Assembly: GCF_021608265.1 (NCBI RefSeq)
Contig: NZ_JAKIHP010000002.1
Location: 372,001 to 436,000 of the forward strand
Direction: 5' to 3'
Length of the DNA: 64,000 bases
DNA from: Flavobacterium wongokense
Lineage (GTDB): Bacteria > Bacteroidota > Bacteroidia > Flavobacteriales > Flavobacteriaceae
In this document: piece by piece, positions 46,320-59,227 of the stretch
How positions within the stretch are numbered: the first letter of the stretch is position 1
How the letters are laid out: the number at the start of each line of letters is the position of its first letter
The notes under the pieces: model-generated
Databases searched by the model: none
What the model was told of the DNA's origin: nothing
What the model saw: only the letters and a program-made list of their open reading frames with translations
Made by a program: the position numbers and the translations under genes

Positions 46320-47057
46320 ATGGGAATATTTGACAAACTTTTTGGAAAGAAGACCGAAAACAAACCACAGGAAGAAAAGAAAGACCTCTTTATGGAAGCC
46401 TTATACCAGGAAGATGACGAAGCAACAGACGAAGTTTTTACTGTAGCTGCCGACAAGGACATTGTCATTGCGGATACTATAGGCTATGAAATCGTCCGCC
46501 CGCTAACCGATGCTCAAAGGGAAGCTGTTTATAATTCTACCATTTACATCAGCAATGGGCAGTTGTACATGCATTATTATACAGACGGATTAAAAGAAGA
46601 CCGGGACAATCCTGAGTGGCAGAATAAAGTGCTGTTCTTCTGGACTGCCGAAGAAGAGTTTCCTAAAAAATCACTTCCTGCCGCATTTGAAACCTATAAA
46701 CACAAACACTTTATCTTTAGCGGTGATACTGAGGGAATACAACTGCAGGTTGGGAAAGCCATTCCGTGGTTTGGCATGCCTGGAGAAGGCAAAAAACACG
46801 CCTGCCTGATTGATGGCAAGATGGTATCCATCCCCGAACTGAACAAAATGGGATTGGTTGATTATATAGAAATGGTGGAACTTACAGATAGCAACCTCAA
46901 CATATTGACCAATCAGGAAGAGTATTACCTGTTGGTTGACGAAAGGATTACACCTTATGAAGACGGTAATTTTTACCTAAACGGCAGATCGGTTCCAATT
47001 GATGTTGCGTACAGCGTGGGTGGAATCCATATCATCAAAATGACAACTCTGGAGTAA
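46320..47057 (+). CDS. Cytosolic protein of unknown function
   Basis: 245 residues, acidic, no signal peptide. It starts with a basic patch MGIFDKLFGKKTENK, as in proteins targeted to membranes or complexes, then an acidic stretch and a globular part with GQLYMHYYTDGLKEDRDNPEWQNKVLFFWTAEEEFP and YYLLVDERITPYEDGNFYLNGRSVPIDVAYSVGGIHIIKM. No family recognised. Its stop overlaps the start of the 53-residue ORF (TAATG), so the two are translationally coupled. Confidence 0.7.
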   Translation: MGIFDKLFGKKTENKPQEEKKDLFMEALYQEDDEATDEVFTVAADKDIVIADTIGYEIVRPLTDAQREAVYNSTIYISNGQLYMHYYTDGLKEDRDNPEWQNKVLFFWTAEEEFPKKSLPAAFETYKHKHFIFSGDTEGIQLQVGKAIPWFGMPGEGKKHACLIDGKMVSIPELNKMGLVDYIEMVELTDSNLNILTNQEEYYLLVDERITPYEDGNFYLNGRSVPIDVAYSVGGIHIIKMTTLE

Positions 47058-47224: not shown

Positions 47225-47258
47225 TTTGACATATCGAAGAATTAAAGACTTACCTTTG
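47225..47258 (+). promoter_or_regulatory. Promoter TTTG-N22-TACCTTTG
   Basis: TTTG at 47225-47228 and TACCTTTG at 47251-47258. The -7 element ends 6 bases before ATG 47265, leaving almost no room for a leader and ribosome binding site. Confidence 0.65.
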
Positions 47259-47264
47259 ATTGGA

Positions 47265-48437
47265 ATGAATCAAAAAACCCGTGTCCCCGACCCAAAGGCT
47301 ATTCAAAACGAACTTGAGAACAGCCATGCCGAATTACTTATCGCCAATAAGGAACTTGCGTTCCAGAATGAGGAAAAGGAAAAACGCGCTGCCGAATTAC
47401 TTATCGCCAATGAAGAACTTGCGTTCCAGAACCAGGAGAAGGAAAAACGTGCTGCTGAACTGGTTATTGCCAATAAGGAATTGGTTTTTCAAAATACCGA
47501 AAAGGAAAAACGCGCTGCAGAGTTAATCATAGCTAACAAGGAACTTATTTTTCAAAATGCGGAAAAGGAAAAGCGTGCTGCCGAACTGGTAATCGCCAAT
47601 AAGGAACTGGCTTTTCAGAATACAGAAAAAGAGAAACGCGCAGCCGAATTGGTCATAGCCAATATGGAACTGGCTTTTCAGAATGTAGAAAAGGAAAAGC
47701 GTGCTGCCGAGTTAATGATTGCCAACAAGGAACTGGAATCCTTTACCTTTATTTCCAGCCATGACCTGCAGGAACCCTTAAGAAAGATACAGGCATTTTC
47801 AAGTCGCATCCTTGCCGAAGAACACAGCAACCTTTCCGTAAAGGGAAAATACTATTTTGAGCGTACACAGAATTCTGCACTCCACATGCAGAACTTAATA
47901 AATGACCTGCTTGCCTATTCGCGTACCACGGTAACCGAAAGAAAATTTGAAAAATGCAGTTTGAATAAGATTATTAGGGAAGCGATGGCAGCCCTGAAGG
48001 AAGAAATGCAGCACAAAGGTGCGAACATTGAAATGGGAGAATTACACGAAGCCTGCATCATTCCGTTTCAGTTTCGACAGCTGATACAAAATCTTATTGC
48101 CAATTCCCTTAAATTCTCAAGGACTGAAGCACCGCCCCACATTACAATAAAAAGTGATTACATCAAGTATGATGCATCAAACCCAGACCGGTTTCCAATG
48201 CAGGCAGATTATTACCATATCAGCGTTGCAGACAATGGCATTGGTTTCAGTCCTGAATACAAAGACAGGATATTTGAAATCTTTCAGCGGCTACATCTTA
48301 AGGAAACTTATGATGGTACGGGAATTGGGCTAACCATTGTCAAGAAAATCGTAGAAAACCACAACGGAATCATTACTGCTACTGGTGAACCAGGCAAAGG
48401 ATGCACCTTTGACATTTACATTCCTGAGCAGCAGTAG
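47265..48437 (+). CDS. Sensor histidine kinase with tandem-repeat coiled coil
   Basis: 390 residues from ATG 47265; upstream start codons would lie inside the promoter. Residues 23-156 are six 21-residue repeats ELxIANKELxFQNxEKEKRAA plus a partial seventh: exactly three heptads each, so a long parallel coiled coil. A dimerisation domain follows with phospho-acceptor His166 (ISSHDLQEPLRK), then the ATPase domain (N box NLIANSLKFS, G1 DNGIGF, F and G2 boxes GTGIGLTIVKK). There is no membrane segment, no PAS/GAF domain and no adjacent response regulator. It probably signals to an unlinked partner from the cytosol, with the repeats acting as a rigid spacer or interaction rod. Confidence 0.92.
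   Translation: MNQKTRVPDPKAIQNELENSHAELLIANKELAFQNEEKEKRAAELLIANEELAFQNQEKEKRAAELVIANKELVFQNTEKEKRAAELIIANKELIFQNAEKEKRAAELVIANKELAFQNTEKEKRAAELVIANMELAFQNVEKEKRAAELMIANKELESFTFISSHDLQEPLRKIQAFSSRILAEEHSNLSVKGKYYFERTQNSALHMQNLINDLLAYSRTTVTERKFEKCSLNKIIREAMAALKEEMQHKGANIEMGELHEACIIPFQFRQLIQNLIANSLKFSRTEAPPHITIKSDYIKYDASNPDRFPMQADYYHISVADNGIGFSPEYKDRIFEIFQRLHLKETYDGTGIGLTIVKKIVENHNGIITATGEPGKGCTFDIYIPEQQ
47331..47735 (+). repeat. 63-bp tandem repeat, 6 full copies plus partial
   Basis: Units start at 47331, 47394, 47457, 47520, 47583 and 47646, with a partial unit at 47709. Copies differ mainly at third codon positions. Encodes the coiled-coil repeats of the histidine kinase. Confidence 0.95.
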
Positions 48438-52810: not shown

Positions 52811-54058
52811 ATGCTTACTACCGCCTTTCAACGCTACATCAACAACTTCAGGGGATTTTCAAGAGAGATTTGGATACTGACGCTTATCACATTCATCAAT
52901 CGCGCCGGCACGATGGTGCTTCCCTTTCTGTCTAAATATTTAAAGGAAGACCTGCATTTTTCATATAGCGAGGTTGGATGGATTATGGTGTGCTTTGGTA
53001 CAGGTTCCATCATTGGTTCCTGGCTTGGCGGAAAGCTTTCGGATAAGATTGGCTTTTACAAAATTATGATTTTCAGCCTGCTTACCACAGGTATACTCCT
53101 TTTCTTTGTGCAATTCATCCACACCTTTGTTGGATTGTGCATCGGAATGTTTGTATTGATGATTATTGCTGATATGTTCCGTCCTGCGATGTTTGTTTCA
53201 CTGGGAGCCTATGCCAAACCTGAAAACAGGACCCGTGCGTTGACTTTGGTTCGTTTAGCCATTAATCTTGGATTTGCAGCCGGACCGGCTTTGGGTGGAA
53301 TTATTATCATGACTATTGGCTATGCTGGTTTGTTTTGGGTTGATGGTGCAACCTGCATTATTGCGATACTTATCTTTTGGTTAAAAGTAAAGGAAAAGAA
53401 AAAGTCGCCTTTCATAGATAAGAAACATCCTGATGATGTGCTGACCCATTCCGTGTTTAAGGACAAACCGTTCTGGATATTCCTTTTTGCCTGTTTGGTT
53501 TCGGGAGTTTTATTTTTCCAGTGCTTTACCACTATTCCACTTTACCATAAAGAACAATTCAACCTGACGGAGTTACAGACCGGATTATTACTGACGATGA
53601 ACGGCCTGATGATTTTCTTTATGGAAATGCCAATTGTCAGTTATGTTGAACGCAATAAGATCAGTAAGGTAAAGGTTGTTGCATTTGGCTGCCTGCTGAT
53701 GGCAATCAGCCTGTTCCTGATGTTGGTGGATAGTTGGGCAGGAATACTGGTTATTATGATGCTGTTTATGACCTTTGGAGAAATGTTTGCTTTCCCGTTT
53801 TCCAATTCGGTTGCGTTAAGCCGTGCGCCAAAAGGCCATGAAGGACGCTATATGGCAATTTACACCATGAGTTATAGTTTGGCGCACATCTTTAGTGCCA
53901 AAGCCGGTATGGGAATCATAGATTACTACAGCCATAAATATGGGCATTTATACGGCTACCAGATGAACTGGCTCTTTATGGGAATCCTAGGACTTTTAGG
54001 AATGTTTTCTGGATTTTGGGTATATCGCCTAATACAAAAAGAGTCTAAAGATTTATAA
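52811..54058 (+). CDS. MFS transporter, drug-exporter type
   Basis: 415 residues with 12 membrane segments. The A motif GSWLGGKLSDKIGFYK between helices 2 and 3 and the conserved NxxxAxGPALGG in helix 5 (NLGFAAGPALGGI) mark an MFS drug:proton antiporter (MdtH/YfcJ-like group). Inner membrane. It is upstream of the BlaI region but separated by 116 bases and on its own promoter. Confidence 0.9.
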   Translation: MLTTAFQRYINNFRGFSREIWILTLITFINRAGTMVLPFLSKYLKEDLHFSYSEVGWIMVCFGTGSIIGSWLGGKLSDKIGFYKIMIFSLLTTGILLFFVQFIHTFVGLCIGMFVLMIIADMFRPAMFVSLGAYAKPENRTRALTLVRLAINLGFAAGPALGGIIIMTIGYAGLFWVDGATCIIAILIFWLKVKEKKKSPFIDKKHPDDVLTHSVFKDKPFWIFLFACLVSGVLFFQCFTTIPLYHKEQFNLTELQTGLLLTMNGLMIFFMEMPIVSYVERNKISKVKVVAFGCLLMAISLFLMLVDSWAGILVIMMLFMTFGEMFAFPFSNSVALSRAPKGHEGRYMAIYTMSYSLAHIFSAKAGMGIIDYYSHKYGHLYGYQMNWLFMGILGLLGMFSGFWVYRLIQKESKDL

Positions 54059-54100: not shown

Positions 54101-54155
54101 ATAGTTAAATAACTATAAAAATAGTTGTGTAACTAAAAATATAGTTGTACTTTCG
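54101..54155 (+). promoter_or_regulatory. BlaI-type operator array overlapping the blaI promoter
   Basis: Three ATAGTT units start at 54101, 54121 and 54141, exactly 20 bases apart. The first is a full inverted repeat ATAGTTA-AA-TAACTAT, the second is nearly so (ATAGTTGTGTAACTAA), the third is a half site. The -33 TTG (54125) and the -7 TACTTTCG (54148) lie within the array, so a bound repressor would block the promoter. Confidence 0.75.
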
Positions 54156-54174
54156 ATTCAAAATAAAAAGAATC

Positions 54175-54534
54175 ATGCAAAAGTTAACAAACAAGGAAGA
54201 GGAAATCATGCAGATTTTATGGAAGCTTAAAAAAGCTTTTGTAAAAGAAGTCATGGCAGAAATCACAGACGAGCAACCCCATTACAATACGCTTTCTACC
54301 ATCATCAGGAACCTGGAAGAAAAAGGATTTGTGTCGCACAATGCTTTTGGGAACACCCACCAGTACTTTCCTATCATAAAAATGGAAGACTACAGAAAGA
54401 AGTTTATGAAAACAGCTATCGACACCTATTTTAATAGTTCCTATAAAAATATGGTTTCATTCTTTGCTGAAGAGGAAAAGATTTCGGCAGACGAATTGAG
54501 GGAGATTTTGGCAATCATCGAAAACAAAAAATAG
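54175..54534 (+). CDS. BlaI/MecI/CopY-type transcriptional repressor
   Basis: 119 residues from ATG 54175 (MQKLTNKEEEIMQILW, the usual family start); the frame is open to 54145, inside the promoter. Winged helix about 1-75, with ITDEQPHYNTLSTIIRNLEEKGFV as recognition helix and wing, and a C-terminal dimerisation domain. BlaI homologues are cleaved by their partner M56 protease near an Asn-Phe bond; the corresponding stretch here is KNMVSFFAEEEK. The operator array lies directly upstream, so it is likely autoregulated. The two M56 genes follow at 7 bases. Confidence 0.92.
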   Translation: MQKLTNKEEEIMQILWKLKKAFVKEVMAEITDEQPHYNTLSTIIRNLEEKGFVSHNAFGNTHQYFPIIKMEDYRKKFMKTAIDTYFNSSYKNMVSFFAEEEKISADELREILAIIENKK

Positions 54535-54541
54535 TAGAACG

Positions 54542-56332
54542 ATGGACCAGCTATTCCTATATCTTTTAAAATCAGGTGGATTGATTGCGGTGTTTTACCT
54601 TGCCTATCATTTTTTAGTACGCAAAGAAACATTCTTTAACAGCAACCGATGGTTTTTACTAAGTGGTTTAGCGACTTCGCTCCTATTGCCTTTATTTTTC
54701 ATTAGTAAAATTGTAATAGTTGAAAGACCTGTAATTCAGGTTCAGGATTATGCAGTTGTACCACAACAGCCAGCTCCAATAATCCATAATATTCCAGTTG
54801 CTGAACCCTTTGACTGGACGCAGTTACTATGGACCGTTTATTTCATTATTGCGGCTGTTTTAGTGATTAAGATTGTGATTAACCTAGCATCACTTTATCG
54901 AATGCTAACAAAACAGCAATCTATTAAAAAAGAGCAGTTTAAATTAATCAATCTAAATGATAACATCGCTCCATTTTCGTTCTTTAATTATATTGTATAC
55001 AACCCAAATTTGTATTCAGAAAAAGAGCTCGAGAATATTTTACTCCATGAAAAAATCCACAGTAAAGGAAAGCACTCCATTGATGTTTTGACAGCTGAAA
55101 CAATGTGTGCACTATTTTGGTTCAATCCGTTCATGTGGCTGTATAAAAAAGCCATTACCCAAAACCTGGAATACATCGCCGATCAGCGAGCTATCGAACA
55201 GACTGACGATAGAAAATCCTATCAACACGCTTTGCTAAAAGTAGTTTCTAATCAAAACTGCCTGCCTATAACCAATAATTTTTATCAATCATTAATCAAA
55301 AAACGAATCGTTATGTTAAACAAAAATCAATCACACAGAAGAAGTTACTTAAAGTATGCCATGATCCTTCCGGCGCTAGTTGGCTTTGTACTTTTATTCC
55401 AGGTAAAGGTAATCGCACAGGACAAATTTATTGCGCTAACCAACGATGTAGCTTTGGCCAGCAGCAACACTGTAACTAATCAAGACAGTGTAACAGAAGA
55501 AGCATTAGCCATACCTATTCCAACAGAAGGCGAAGGCAATTATGTTTTTGACAAAACCGAAACCGATGAAAACCTAAAGGACGATGCAGCAGATATTGAA
55601 CAGGTACATAAAATCAGTTTTACCATTTCTAATGTAAAAAGAAACAGCAACGGGGAAATCATCTCCATTAAAATGGCTTTTGATGATAAAAAAGGAAACA
55701 AAGGTAAAGTCGAACAAGACCGAACCATTCCAATCCGTCCAATATTCTTTCAGGTAAAACAAAAAGACGGCAAAAGCATCATCGGTTTTTATGACAATCC
55801 GGATATGGTCGTAAAACCTGTAGATCCGGTAAATGAGAACAAAATTGTAACCATTGAATCCATTAAGGACAATGCATTGATATATGTAGACGGAGAAAGA
55901 TATACCAAAGAAAGCCTGAGTGAACTTGATCCAAAAGGATTGGAGAAAATTGAGCTTTTGAAAGACGCGGCATCCTTGGCACAATATGGCGCCAAAGACA
56001 GATCGGAAGTGGTGGTGATTACAACCAACTGGCCATCGCGAGAGCAGAACATTGCAATGAGACAGCAACAGTCTCCCAACATCATCACCCTGCAAAATGG
56101 CGATGAAGTGGTAATATTTGACAAATGCAATATGAAAATTCCGGGCTATCCTTCGGTTCAATTCACTGATAGCTCACCGGTTATGATACTAAATGGCGTG
56201 CAGCAGAAAAATCCAAGGCTTATTTTGGAAAGCATGCCTCTTTCAAAGATTAAGACAATAAAAGTGCTTGATGCCAACGACAAGGAAACAAAGGGCACTC
56301 CAATTTATAAACTGATTTTAACAACAAAGTAA
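54542..56332 (+). CDS. M56 (BlaR1-like) membrane metallopeptidase 1 with sensor and plug-like domains
   Basis: 596 residues. Four membrane segments (about 5-25, 38-58, 96-115, 271-291); the zinc site HEKIH (169-173) and third ligand Glu210 in LEYIAD form an active cytosol-facing peptidase between segments 3 and 4. After segment 4 the periplasmic part has a module about 340-416 (ISNVKRNSNGEIISIKMAFDDKKGNKG) shared with the two downstream proteins, and two TonB-plug-like units (about 445-496, DNALIYVDGERYTKESLSELDPKGLEKIELLKDAASLAQYG; about 546-596, SSPVMILNGVQQKNPRLILESMPLSKIKTIKVL). Expected to sense an envelope signal and cleave the BlaI-type repressor. Confidence 0.9.
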   Translation: MDQLFLYLLKSGGLIAVFYLAYHFLVRKETFFNSNRWFLLSGLATSLLLPLFFISKIVIVERPVIQVQDYAVVPQQPAPIIHNIPVAEPFDWTQLLWTVYFIIAAVLVIKIVINLASLYRMLTKQQSIKKEQFKLINLNDNIAPFSFFNYIVYNPNLYSEKELENILLHEKIHSKGKHSIDVLTAETMCALFWFNPFMWLYKKAITQNLEYIADQRAIEQTDDRKSYQHALLKVVSNQNCLPITNNFYQSLIKKRIVMLNKNQSHRRSYLKYAMILPALVGFVLLFQVKVIAQDKFIALTNDVALASSNTVTNQDSVTEEALAIPIPTEGEGNYVFDKTETDENLKDDAADIEQVHKISFTISNVKRNSNGEIISIKMAFDDKKGNKGKVEQDRTIPIRPIFFQVKQKDGKSIIGFYDNPDMVVKPVDPVNENKIVTIESIKDNALIYVDGERYTKESLSELDPKGLEKIELLKDAASLAQYGAKDRSEVVVITTNWPSREQNIAMRQQQSPNIITLQNGDEVVIFDKCNMKIPGYPSVQFTDSSPVMILNGVQQKNPRLILESMPLSKIKTIKVLDANDKETKGTPIYKLILTTK

Positions 56333-56344
56333 AAATAAACCAAC

Positions 56345-58210
56345 ATGGAAGCGATATTTATATACTTACTTAAATCGAGCGGATTGATTACTGTTTTTTA
56401 TTTAGCGTATCATTTTTTGGTTCGAAAAGAGACGTTTTTCAACAGTAATCGTTGGTTTCTCTTGAGTGGATTATTTACATCGCTTCTATTACCATTGTTT
56501 ATCATTAAGAAAATCATATTGGTGGAACGCCCAAAAATAGCAGCCGAAGATCTGGTTGCCTATTCCCAGATTTCTGCCCAAAGAATACAAGATGTTCCTG
56601 CTGTTGAAGCATTTGATTGGATGCAATTTATTTGGATTAGTTATATCATCATTGCCTGCGTACTCGTGATTAGAATAGTATTTAATTTCACTTCGCTCTA
56701 TCGAATGCTTTATCAACAGCAAGTTATTAAAAGAGAACAATTTAAATTAGTCAACCTAAATGAGAATATAGCTCCGTTTTCGTTCTTCAACTACATTGTT
56801 TACAACTCCGATTTGTATTCAACCGAAGAACTGCAAAGTATCTTATTACACGAAAAAATCCACAGCCAGGAGAAACATTCCCTTGATGTGCTTATTGCCA
56901 AATTGTTCTGCATCGTATTTTGGTTTAATCCGTTTATGTGGCTTTACAAAAAGGCAATTACACAAAACCTTGAATACATCGCCGACCAGAAAGCCATCGA
57001 ACAACTAGAGGACAAAAAGTCTTATCAAAGAGCTTTATTAAAAGTAGTTTCTCATCAAAGCTGCCTATCAATCACCAACAATTTTTATCAATCATTAATC
57101 AAAAAAAGAATCGTTATGTTAAACAAGAACCAATCACACAAAAGAAATTCGTGGAAGTATGCCATGATCATCCCGGCCCTCATTGGCTTTGTATTTTTAT
57201 TCCAGATAAAAACCATAGCACAGGAAAAGGAAGAAAATGTAATCTTCACCAAAGCCATTCACAAAGGCAATGAAGTACGCGTTACCGTAAATAAAAATTC
57301 CACCGATGCCGAGATGAAAAAAGACGCATCCGAACTTAAGAAAACTCACGGAATCACCTTGAAATACTCTAAGGTAAAAAGAAACAGCGATGGAGAAATC
57401 ACAGGAATCAAGGTAGAATTCAAGGATAAGGATGGTAACAAAGGCGTTTCTCAGGTAGACGGAAAAGAACCTATCAAACCTATCCATTTCTACAAAAACG
57501 ATTCAGGTGTAGGTTTCGGAAGACCAAAGGAACTGAGAATGTACACCAACTATTCAACTGGTGGAAATGACAATGCCCCAATGGCAATTGCAATTGGCGA
57601 CAGCGTGAATGTTGTTGGGAATTTTGATTTCGACTTTGATTTGGATTTACCGGAACCACCGGAAGCTCCTGAGTCACCGGAAGCAGTAGAATTACCTGAA
57701 GCTCCTGAAGCATTTGCATGGGGCGACAACCAAAAAATAATCATCAAGACCGATGGCGATAAAAAACCTATGGTAATCATCAATGGAAAAGTGCTTTCAG
57801 ATGAAAAAGAAATCGAGGAAGCTTTGCAAAAATATGGTGCCAAAGGAAAAGGGAAAGGAAAAGCCTATTGCTACAGCTACTCCTCATCCTCTGATGGCGA
57901 TAGTCAGCAAATCATCATCAATGGCAAGGATGTAATGAAGATCAAATCTGATGCTATGGCTAATGCCAACATCCAAATGAAAAAATTACGCCCAATGATG
58001 GCGAAACAAATGGAATTGGCTAAACTAAGTAAAAGCAAAGCCAGAGCTGAAATGGATGCGGCAAGAGCGCAACTGAATGCATCCAAACCGGAAATGGAAG
58101 CAGCAAAAGCTGAAATGAACAGAGCTAAGGAAGAAATGCTGAAAGCAAAAGCCGAAATGGAAGCAGCCAAAGCCGAGTATGAAAAAGCCAAAGCTGAACT
58201 AAAAAAATAA
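56345..58210 (+). CDS. M56 (BlaR1-like) membrane metallopeptidase 2, Ala/Glu/Lys-rich tail
   Basis: 621 residues, about 70% identical by eye to peptidase 1 over residues 1-295, with the same four membrane segments, HEKIH (169-173) and LEYIAD. The ectodomain differs: module about 309-392 (VKRNSDGEITGIKVEFKDKDGNKG), a Pro/Glu-rich hinge (435-456), a plug-like unit (KPMVIINGKVLSDEKEIEEALQKYG), and a long coiled coil 545-621 of Lys/Ala/Glu. The gene begins 12 bases after peptidase 1: a recent tandem duplication with a diverged sensor. Two sensors for one repressor would let different signals act on the same regulon (inference). Confidence 0.9.
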   Translation: MEAIFIYLLKSSGLITVFYLAYHFLVRKETFFNSNRWFLLSGLFTSLLLPLFIIKKIILVERPKIAAEDLVAYSQISAQRIQDVPAVEAFDWMQFIWISYIIIACVLVIRIVFNFTSLYRMLYQQQVIKREQFKLVNLNENIAPFSFFNYIVYNSDLYSTEELQSILLHEKIHSQEKHSLDVLIAKLFCIVFWFNPFMWLYKKAITQNLEYIADQKAIEQLEDKKSYQRALLKVVSHQSCLSITNNFYQSLIKKRIVMLNKNQSHKRNSWKYAMIIPALIGFVFLFQIKTIAQEKEENVIFTKAIHKGNEVRVTVNKNSTDAEMKKDASELKKTHGITLKYSKVKRNSDGEITGIKVEFKDKDGNKGVSQVDGKEPIKPIHFYKNDSGVGFGRPKELRMYTNYSTGGNDNAPMAIAIGDSVNVVGNFDFDFDLDLPEPPEAPESPEAVELPEAPEAFAWGDNQKIIIKTDGDKKPMVIINGKVLSDEKEIEEALQKYGAKGKGKGKAYCYSYSSSSDGDSQQIIINGKDVMKIKSDAMANANIQMKKLRPMMAKQMELAKLSKSKARAEMDAARAQLNASKPEMEAAKAEMNRAKEEMLKAKAEMEAAKAEYEKAKAELKK

Positions 58211-58311
58211 TAGTTAAAAAATTGCAAAACCCTTTTTACGAAAAAGTGATTCGTTTTAAGTTTGCTACAAATTAATCAATTACAATTATCAACCACTTTA
58301 ATATTATTGTT

Positions 58312-59190
58312 ATGAAAAACAACTTGTTTTATTCGCTGGTATGCATTGCGTTGTTTCAATCATCAATCTTTGCACAGGATAAAAAATCATCTGAGTCTTC
58401 AGATAAAACGTTTGACAATATTGTCATGACTTGGAACAAGGATACGCCCGAAAGCGAAATGAAGGACGATATCAAGGCTTTAAAAGAGCATGGCGTTACG
58501 ATTACCTATTCCGATGTAAAACGAAACAGCAAAGGGGAAATTACAGCTATCAAGGTTGACTTCGCTGATAAAGACGGAAGCAAAGGCAGTATGTCGGTAG
58601 ACACTCAAAAACCAATCAACACCATTAAAATTTACAAGCAAAATGATGAAGTGGGATTCGGAGATCCCGCTGGTTCAGGTTTCATGAATGGAAATAATTT
58701 TGCGTATGGCTTTAATGGCAATGATATGATGAAAGGTTTCCCGTTTAACGAAGATGGATTGCCTGGACAACAGTTTCATTATAGTTTCCCAAATGGTAAT
58801 TTATTTGGAGATTCGGATTCCAAAATCATTATAAAGCAGGATGGTAAAAAACCATTGGTAATCCAGGATGGGAATATTGTTGAAGGCGGTGATGATTATA
58901 CCAAAGAAGAATTGGAAGACATCAAAAAGAATAACAAAACAGAATCTTTTGGAAGTTTCAACGGACAGGGAATGGAAAACCTGGATGAGCAAATGGAACA
59001 ATTACAGCAACAGATGGACGAAATGTCGAAATCATTTGGTAAGTCAGGCAAACCAAAGTCTGAATCTGAAAGCACCAAGGAAGAAATGAAAAAAGCCACC
59101 GAAGAAATGAAAAAGGCAAAAGAGGAATTGGAAAATGCCACGAAGGAACTCAAAAAAGCCAAATCGAGCTTAAAGACACAAAAAGCATAA
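58312..59190 (+). CDS. Secreted paralogue of the M56 ectodomain
   Basis: 292 residues. Signal peptide 1-21 (ending SSIFAQ), no membrane or peptidase domain. Residues 36-118 (WNKDTPESEMKDDIKALKEHGVTITYSDVKRNSKGEITAIKVDFADKDGSKG, then KIYKQNDEVGFG) align with the module at 309-392 of peptidase 2. KIIIKQDGKKPLVIQDGNIV (about 171-190) matches its KIIIKTDGDKKPMVIINGKVL, and a Lys/Glu/Ala coiled coil (about 223-292) matches its tail. So it is a free, soluble copy of the sensor ectodomain. It could bind the same signal, or the peptidases themselves, and tune induction (inference). Gap of 101 bases from peptidase 2, terminator after it. Confidence 0.88.
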   Translation: MKNNLFYSLVCIALFQSSIFAQDKKSSESSDKTFDNIVMTWNKDTPESEMKDDIKALKEHGVTITYSDVKRNSKGEITAIKVDFADKDGSKGSMSVDTQKPINTIKIYKQNDEVGFGDPAGSGFMNGNNFAYGFNGNDMMKGFPFNEDGLPGQQFHYSFPNGNLFGDSDSKIIIKQDGKKPLVIQDGNIVEGGDDYTKEELEDIKKNNKTESFGSFNGQGMENLDEQMEQLQQQMDEMSKSFGKSGKPKSESESTKEEMKKATEEMKKAKEELENATKELKKAKSSLKTQKA

Positions 59191-59194
59191 TTTC

Positions 59195-59227
59195 AAAAAA
59201 AGCAAGTCAGTTACGGCTTGCTTTTTT
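59195..59227 (+). terminator. Intrinsic terminator
   Basis: Stem AAAAAGCAAG / CTTGCTTTTT with a 10-base loop, ends the BlaI-M56 region. Confidence 0.88.

What the first reader, a model, noticed from the sequence alone, without database searches (positions are those of the whole stretch)
54101..59190. BlaI repressor with two tandem M56 peptidases and a free secreted ectodomain paralogue
Directly seen: a BlaI-type gene, two duplicated M56 peptidases (identical HEKIH and LEYIAD zinc sites, same membrane layout), and a soluble exported protein whose whole mature part aligns with the ectodomain of peptidase 2, including the KRNS-GEI--IK---DK-G-KG module, the KIIIK-DGKKP--I-G unit and the coiled-coil tail. 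Classic BlaR1 sensors carry one penicillin-binding domain; here it is replaced by this module, and no beta-lactamase gene is present. The free copy could be a co-sensor, competitor or adaptor. I know of no description of such a secreted decoy in BlaI/BlaR systems.
Basis: partly seen in the sequence, partly recalled or inferred. Interest (0 to 1): 0.78.

Follow-up and report, generated by a model that had tools for sequence, protein, structure and literature searches.

The report
Secreted sensor that outlives its receptor
Beside a BlaI repressor and two BlaR1-like membrane peptidases, this Flavobacterium encodes a predicted secreted copy of one peptidase's outer sensing part, and some related bacteria that lack the repressor and the peptidases still keep this gene under purifying selection, so it likely does a job of its own and is not only a decoy.

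Summary
In detail: BlaI, two tandem M56 peptidases and a signal-peptide protein (FREE, 58312-59190) share an ~80-residue module, and FREE aligns along most of its mature length with ectodomain 2 (E 4e-28). FREE is an old, conserved, mainly Flavobacterium gene (53 loci). Among 121 Flavobacterium genomes, 13 of 16 FREE-type genes lie beside an M56 gene, so the link is real. It is not obligatory: the other 3 genomes have no M56 anywhere, nor have 13 of 17 genomes behind unlinked FREE loci (one genome is in both sets), while FREE keeps dN/dS near 0.1-0.2. Some FREE signal peptides resemble the last M56 membrane helix, so FREE is likely an M56 gene reduced to its ectodomain. BlaI's promoter has two dyads 20 bp apart in 31 of 32 loci; FREE has none of that strength but its own box in 50 of 52. 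Best reading: a detached receptor ectodomain, likely a free periplasmic binding protein; tuning the receptor is possible but cannot be its only role. Ligand and activity are unknown.

The parts
54102..54146 (+). BlaI operator array: dyads 54102-54115 and 54122-54135 (TAGTTnnnnAACTA) and a third half-site AGTT at 54143-54146, 20 bp apart, just before the -7-like TACTTTCG at 54148-54155
   Evidence: in 31 of 32 BlaI promoters two dyads exactly 20 bp apart, AGTT 20 bp after the last perfect dyad in 32 of 32 (in L024 that is the second, imperfect site); only perfect tandem pair in the genome
54175..54534 (+). BlaI/MecI-type repressor, 119 aa; Phe97 invariant in 34 of 34 and aligned to the MecI Phe just after the cleaved bond (place of the cleavage recalled)
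   Evidence: PF03965, 5.6e-32; MecI 6.8e-12
54542..56332 (+). M56 peptidase 1 (BlaR1-like), 596 aa, HEKIH and LEYIAD
55532..55750 (+). module in peptidase 1 (about residues 331-403)
55868..55993 (+). TonB-plug-like segment of peptidase 1 (residues 443-484)
   Evidence: PF07715 above cut-off
56345..58210 (+). M56 peptidase 2 (BlaR1-like), 621 aa
   Evidence: family profile aligns to BlaR1 cryo-EM chains over profile positions 1-285
57149..57205 (+). predicted last transmembrane helix of peptidase 2 (residues 269-287), proposed source of the FREE signal peptide
   Evidence: model; profile test
57275..57517 (+). module in peptidase 2 (residues 311-391)
57728..57841 (+). KIIIK unit of peptidase 2 (about residues 462-499)
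57923..58204 (+). predicted long helix (coiled-coil-like tail) of peptidase 2 (residues 527-620)
58213..58264 (+). FREE promoter elements: box GTTAAAAAATTGCAAA (58213-58228), 44 nt from its start to the -7-like TAAGTTTG (58257-58264)
   Evidence: box plus -7 element in 50 of 52 upstream regions, strict form 46 of 52; unique in the genome
58312..59190 (+). FREE: predicted exported ectodomain-only paralogue, 292 aa
58312..58377 (+). signal peptide of FREE, judged by eye (residues 1-22, ends FAQ)
   Evidence: sequence; (helix 2-22)
58420..58659 (+). module in FREE (residues 37-116), strand, helix, then four to five strands, pLDDT mostly over 90
58813..58932 (+). KIIIK unit of FREE (about residues 168-207)
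58981..59184 (+). predicted helical tail of FREE (residues 224-291, with a break at 241-252)
59196..59227 (+). intrinsic-terminator-like hairpin after FREE; the scan found none between peptidase 2 and FREE
   Evidence: -15.7 kcal/mol, z -4.65

Best explanation
FREE (58312-59190) is a predicted periplasmic protein, homologous along most of its mature length to the ectodomain of the neighbouring M56 peptidase 2, likely made when a tandem M56 copy lost its peptidase part and its last membrane helix became a signal peptide, and it likely works as a soluble binding protein for the same, still unknown, envelope ligand or partner as the receptor's sensor. The BlaI-M56 pair would work like BlaI-BlaR1: BlaI would sit on its operator array; a signal at the module-bearing ectodomain would activate the peptidase, which would cut BlaI near Phe97 and induce the operon (inferred from the family). 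FREE has its own promoter elements without BlaI operators, kept also in genomes that lack BlaI, so another regulator, perhaps a response regulator reading the 11-bp direct repeat, likely controls it. Where the receptor is present, FREE would buffer or present the shared ligand; where it is absent, FREE goes on alone. Shown by sequence: homology, linkage, persistence without M56 and BlaI, purifying selection, separate promoter elements. Inferred: export, origin by truncation. Untested: ligand, binding, effect on M56.
For: Homology (ecto2-FREE E 4e-28; KIIIK units match each other at hhalign 97.8%). Same predicted order of elements in the module of both models. Signal peptide: 26 of 83 FREE N-termini score above the 95th percentile of 93 control exported proteins against a profile of M56 helix 4, and 19 of 83 above the best control. 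FREE is one clade among the module sequences (98/89). Linkage in 34 of 53 loci and 13 of 16 in an even sample. No M56 in 13 of 17 genomes of unlinked FREE loci and in 3 of 16 of the even sample, one genome being in both sets. In 11 of 18 unlinked loci FREE stands 87-793 bp after a close relative of the MFS gene that precedes BlaI in the window. The linked/unlinked state changes at least 10 times on the FREE tree, 6 forced by starred branches. dN/dS 0.16-0.21 for close pairs whose genomes both lack M56 (L046/L050, L013/L039, L026/L039). 0 of 52 FREE upstream regions reach the weakest BlaI operator score; own box in 50 of 52.
Against: Sharing of a ligand is inference; none is known and no fold match was found. 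57 of 83 signal peptides do not pass the control 95th percentile, the medians are close (0.8 and 0.1 bits), the window's own (8.1 bits) is below the best control (9.1), 8 of the 93 controls had no score and were set low, and the 83 are related. The module tree rests on 85 columns and the nesting in M56 is weakly supported. Most unlinked genomes are MAGs of untold completeness; only G048 and G080 (99%) and G088 (95%) carry a figure. No terminator was found between peptidase 2 and FREE, so BlaI could still act on FREE by read-through. 17 of 28 FREE upstream regions hold a one-mismatch AGTTnnnnAACT against 4.2 expected, so a weak BlaI site is not fully excluded. The response-regulator reading rests on spacing alone, and no such regulator was identified.
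Confidence: 0.55

Rival explanations
1. FREE is a dedicated partner of the BlaI-M56 receptor: a secreted decoy or co-sensor that binds the ligand or the ectodomain of peptidase 2 and sets the threshold of BlaI induction.
For: Adjacency in 34 of 53 loci and 13 of 16 of the even sample; homology to ectodomain 2 over most of its length; no terminator found between the genes.
Against: FREE persists under purifying selection in genomes without any M56 found, after repeated change of the linked state, with its own promoter elements; pN/pS is alike in unlinked and linked pairs (medians 0.42 and 0.44).
Confidence: 0.25
2. FREE is the older periplasmic protein and an M56 peptidase captured it as a sensor (a rival on origin only).
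For: FREE stands alone in several genomes; the root of the module tree is not fixed.
Against: The module sits in M56-sized frames in about 89 of 121 Flavobacterium genomes and in M56 proteins of two other genera, against FREE-type genes in 16 of 121 (my count from the rows); some signal peptides resemble M56 helix 4 beyond controls; in L081 an ectodomain fragment is sister to its neighbouring M56 (99/94), a clear case of M56 to fragment.
Confidence: 0.1
3. FREE is a structural or chaperone-like envelope protein that reuses the ectodomain scaffold and shares no ligand with the receptor.
For: Conserved helical tail, also in unlinked copies; persistence without receptor; separate promoter elements.
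Against: The module core is the part best conserved between FREE and the M56 sensors.
Confidence: 0.3
4. The free copy is a degenerate by-product (pseudogene or truncated M56) without function.
For: Truncation does occur: L081 fragment and a 136-aa FREE-like remnant in L015.
Against: Relatives in 53 loci, dN/dS 0.05-0.21 in the 44 of 45 printed pairs that have a value, conserved promoter elements.
Confidence: 0.02

Closest known systems
BlaI-BlaR1 / MecI-MecR1 of Staphylococcus aureus
   Same: Repressor family, four predicted helices and HEXXH...E in the peptidase, Arg in an SLxKxR stretch that aligns with BlaR1, Phe at the repressor position aligned to MecI (PMC9834060 and PMC7593790, passages)
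   Different: No penicillin-binding sensor: replaced by the module and, in peptidase 1, a plug-like segment; two tandem peptidases; no beta-lactamase among the neighbours scanned; an ectodomain-only predicted secreted paralogue
Flavobacterial M56 peptidases with other ectodomains (Amidase_3 in L091/L093, TonB_C in L092, Plug in P0235)
   Same: M56 core with a swapped sensor domain, BlaI neighbour in L091-L093
   Different: L091-L093 show no match to this module; P0235 has both module and Plug, like peptidase 1
Periplasmic feedback or auxiliary partners of envelope sensors (CpxP, RseB; recalled, no call)
   Same: Soluble periplasmic protein beside a membrane sensor system
   Different: Those are not recalled as ectodomain paralogues of their sensor; FREE is, and it persists without the sensor

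Membership tests
BlaI/MecI repressors (PF03965) | Penicillinase_R domain over the whole protein | tested here: met
   110.9 bits against cut-off 22.6, residues 4-116
BlaI/MecI repressors (PF03965) | Phe after the scissile bond | tested here: met
   Phe97 aligned to the MecI Phe, invariant in 34 of 34; place of the cleavage recalled; cleavage itself not testable
BlaI/MecI repressors (PF03965) | Dyad operators over its own promoter | tested here: met
   31 of 32 promoters with two dyads 20 bp apart; binding not testable
M56 peptidases (PF05569) | HEXXH and distal Glu zinc ligands | tested here: met
   H169, E170, H173, E210 in 68 of 68 aligned rows
M56 peptidases (PF05569) | Four transmembrane helices with a C-terminal ectodomain | tested here: met
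   model helices 2-26, 32-51, 92-123, 269-287 (mean pLDDT 66.8, so a prediction)
BlaR1 beta-lactam sensors | C-terminal penicillin-binding sensor domain | tested here: not met
   no such Pfam match; BlaR1 chains align only to profile positions 1-285; NCBIfam blaR1_generic 36.5 and 37.5 bits against cut-off 400
BlaR1 beta-lactam sensors | Control of a beta-lactamase or PBP gene | tested here: inconclusive
   only perfect tandem operator pair is blaI's own; no beta-lactamase among 15 further window genes scanned; whole genome not searched for one
M56 peptidases (PF05569), FREE as member | Peptidase domain | tested here: not met
   FREE has no M56 match
TonB-plug-containing proteins (PF07715) | Plug domain above cut-off | tested here: inconclusive
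   met in peptidase 1 and L081 fragment; FREE KIIIK unit against four plug-like units only 29.5%
OmpR/PhoB-type regulator target (FREE promoter) | Direct repeat with about 11-bp period upstream of the promoter (recalled feature) | tested here: inconclusive
   GTTAAA-N5-G[TC][AC]AA in 50 of 52; no regulator identified

The most novel reading that the evidence does not exclude
Receptor ectodomains of BlaR1-like M56 systems have been cut loose from the peptidase at least twice independently in Flavobacterium; in the FREE lineage the last transmembrane helix became a signal peptide, the freed sensor acquired its own regulator, and it has outlived its receptor many times, forming a new family of autonomous periplasmic stress-binding proteins.
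Probability: 0.5. Interest if true: 0.72.

Novelty: new variant of a known kind. Interest (0 to 1): 0.56.

Why it matters
It would show a simple route by which a membrane receptor becomes a secreted protein, and that freed sensors can outlast their receptors. It also gives natural strains with and without the receptor in which the role of a detached ectodomain can be tested, and a handle on what non-beta-lactam BlaI/M56 systems of Bacteroidota sense.
Full report
What is there. The window lies in a genome of 3.3 Mb whose near relatives are Flavobacterium. The locus runs MFS transporter (52811-54058), BlaI (54175-54534), M56 peptidase 1 (54542-56332), M56 peptidase 2 (56345-58210), FREE (58312-59190), terminator-like hairpin, tRNA-Arg. 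In the genome one BlaI, two M56 genes and three copies of the module were found, all here.

The peptidases. Both match PF05569 and have HEKIH and LEYIAD; H169, E170, H173 and E210 are invariant in 68 of 68 rows. A profile of them aligns to the BlaR1 cryo-EM chains over positions 1-285 only, that is, membrane and protease part, not the sensor. PMC9834060 (passages read) gives His201, His205 and Glu242 as zinc ligands in BlaR1 and Phe as the nearly invariant residue after the cleaved bond in BlaI; Phe97 of the window's BlaI aligns to the MecI Phe (that this Phe follows the cleaved bond is recalled) and is invariant in 34 of 34. So the core looks able to work as BlaI-BlaR1. The sensor differs: a module of about 80 residues, plus a plug-like segment in peptidase 1, or a Pro/Glu-rich linker, the KIIIK unit and a predicted long helix in peptidase 2.

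FREE. It has an N-terminal stretch that looks like a signal peptide ending FAQ (judged by eye; a Cys at residue 11 is not in a lipobox), then module, Phe/Asn/Gly-rich linker, KIIIK unit and helical tail. It matches ectodomain 2 at E 4e-28. The module is predicted with confidence mostly over 90 as strand, helix, then four to five strands; much of the rest is low-confidence (mean pLDDT 68.6). The same order is predicted in peptidase 2. No solved fold matched.

How widespread. A protein search gave 350 relatives of FREE with E of 0.001 or better, 120 listed. A scan of genome contigs gave 53 loci; all but one carry Flavobacterium, Flavobacteriaceae, Flavobacteriia/-iales, Flavobacteria or Bacteroidetes titles, and L008, titled a Bifidobacterium breve MAG, has the same gene order. 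Sorting of the 53: 34 have BlaI and/or M56 on the same contig (33 plus L005, whose upstream frame matches the end of peptidase 2); L035 is unresolved at a contig edge; 18 have none nearby (one of them, L006, is cut at its 5' edge). Of those 18, 17 genomes could be searched: 13 have no M56 match, three have only a divergent M56 with another ectodomain (Amidase_3 or TonB_C), and one (L034) has a module-bearing M56 on another contig. Of the 13, 12 also lack BlaI and one has a marginal match.

Even sample. Of 121 Flavobacterium genomes at least 95% complete, 101 match the FREE profile. By my count of the rows, about 89 of these have the module in an M56-sized (or interrupted) frame, 13 have FREE and three (G048, G080, G086) a diverged form, FREE2, at the same place; 5 have only FREE3 (below) and 4 only a match to the helical tail. 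Of the 16 with FREE or FREE2, 13 lie beside a module-bearing M56 frame, judged by coordinates and gene by gene only in the window, L084 and L087; three (G048, G080, G088) have no M56 and no BlaI match in the genome. G088 is the same genome as G012 in the previous paragraph, so the two counts overlap by one. Linkage is strong but not obligatory. The five FREE3 genomes carry a 193-212-residue exported-looking module protein at another locus without BlaI or M56 nearby, and one genome has an ectodomain fragment between two BlaI-M56 pairs (L081). In a draw of 118 genomes from the order, 17 matched: 13 Flavobacterium, three other genera of the family, and one match to the helical tail only. In one of these genera L088 has a module protein just upstream of BlaI-M56; a 99% identical protein is named as Aegicerativicinus sediminis.

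Receptor absent, FREE kept. In 11 of 18 unlinked loci a close relative of the MFS gene that precedes BlaI in the window lies 87-793 bp before FREE. On a tree of 51 FREE proteins the linked/unlinked state changes at least 10 times, six forced by starred branches. L022, unlinked and without M56, is a near relative of the linked L024 and L025. In L011, L029 and L033 the M56 frame is short or interrupted beside an intact FREE; assembly error is possible there. dN/dS between close pairs whose genomes both lack M56 is 0.16 (L046/L050), 0.17 (L013/L039) and 0.21 (L026/L039); median pN/pS is 0.42 among 39 unsaturated unlinked pairs and 0.44 among 33 linked ones. FREE is therefore under purifying selection without the receptor.

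Origin. FREE forms one clade (98/89) among module sequences, FREE2 and FREE3 form others, and the L081 fragment is sister to its neighbouring M56 (85 columns). FREE and the L081 fragment as one clade are rejected (p 1e-42); for FREE with FREE2, or with FREE2 and FREE3, one origin is not rejected. A profile of M56 helix 4 scores 26 of 83 FREE N-termini above the 95th percentile of 93 control exported proteins, and 19 above the best control; the medians are close (0.8 and 0.1 bits) and the window's own (8.1 bits) lies between percentile and maximum. An M56 copy whose last helix became the signal peptide is the simplest account, not a proof.

Regulation. Two TAGTTnnnnAACTA-type dyads exactly 20 bp apart precede BlaI in 31 of 32 promoters (the window and 31 loci; L024 has one perfect dyad), with AGTT 20 bp after the last perfect dyad in all 32. 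In the window the array reaches the promoter (the -7 TAnnTTTG and -33 TTG elements of Bacteroidota promoters are recalled). The tandem pair occurs perfectly once in the genome, so by this test BlaI regulates its own operon. None of 52 FREE upstream regions reaches the weakest BlaI operator score. Instead 50 of 52 have GTTAAA-N5-G[TC][AC]AA before a TAnnTTTG, 43-45 nt apart in all 46 strict matches; the strict box plus -7 element was found nowhere else in 669 kb of the loci and once in the genome. It is kept in genomes without BlaI. A TTG at the -33 distance was counted in 12 of the regions, which would fit a promoter that needs an activator. FREE2 and FREE3 genes do not show this box.

How it likely works. 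Shown: homology, linkage, persistence, selection, separate promoter elements. Inferred: export, truncation origin, working BlaI-M56 switch. Untested: ligand. I favour a soluble periplasmic binding protein that shares the sensor's ligand, because the module is the part that both keep; it may tune the receptor where present but cannot depend on it. The odds given for this reading and its rivals overlap, since tuning and an own role do not exclude each other and one rival concerns origin only.

Known and new. The BlaI-M56 pair is a member of a known kind with a replaced sensor; BlaR1 membership fails on the penicillin-binding domain. The predicted secreted, receptor-independent ectodomain paralogue was not seen in the paper listings searched, nor in the passages seen of PMC9834060, PMC7593790, PMC12578637 and PMC9723704.

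Noticed in passing
L091:2986-5010 and L093:2989-4995: M56 peptidases next to BlaI whose C-terminal part is an N-acetylmuramoyl-L-alanine amidase (Amidase_3, 4.8e-47 and 7.2e-48): a receptor-like protease fused to a cell-wall enzyme.
   Followed up: partly
L076-L080 (193-212 aa genes): A second family of exported-looking module proteins (FREE3) with no BlaI or M56 nearby.
   Followed up: partly
L081:4519-5178: A 219-aa fragment of an M56 with helix 4, module and plug, lying between two BlaI-M56 pairs; sister to its neighbour's module.
   Followed up: partly
L088:4170-6092: An M56 whose ectodomain carries the module twice, at both ends.
   Followed up: no
window 47226-48437: Histidine kinase with an N-terminal run of about 22-residue repeats (ELIIANKELAFQN-EKEKRAA); no partner looked for.
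   Followed up: no
L015:4284-4694: A 136-aa FREE-like remnant upstream of BlaI in Flavobacterium aquatile.
   Followed up: no
L008: Contig titled Bifidobacterium breve MAG that has the Flavobacterium gene order, probably a mis-binned or mislabelled record.
   Followed up: no
window 46320-47057: Unnamed 245-aa protein with a sub-threshold match to PF14021 (20 bits, cut-off 27).
   Followed up: no
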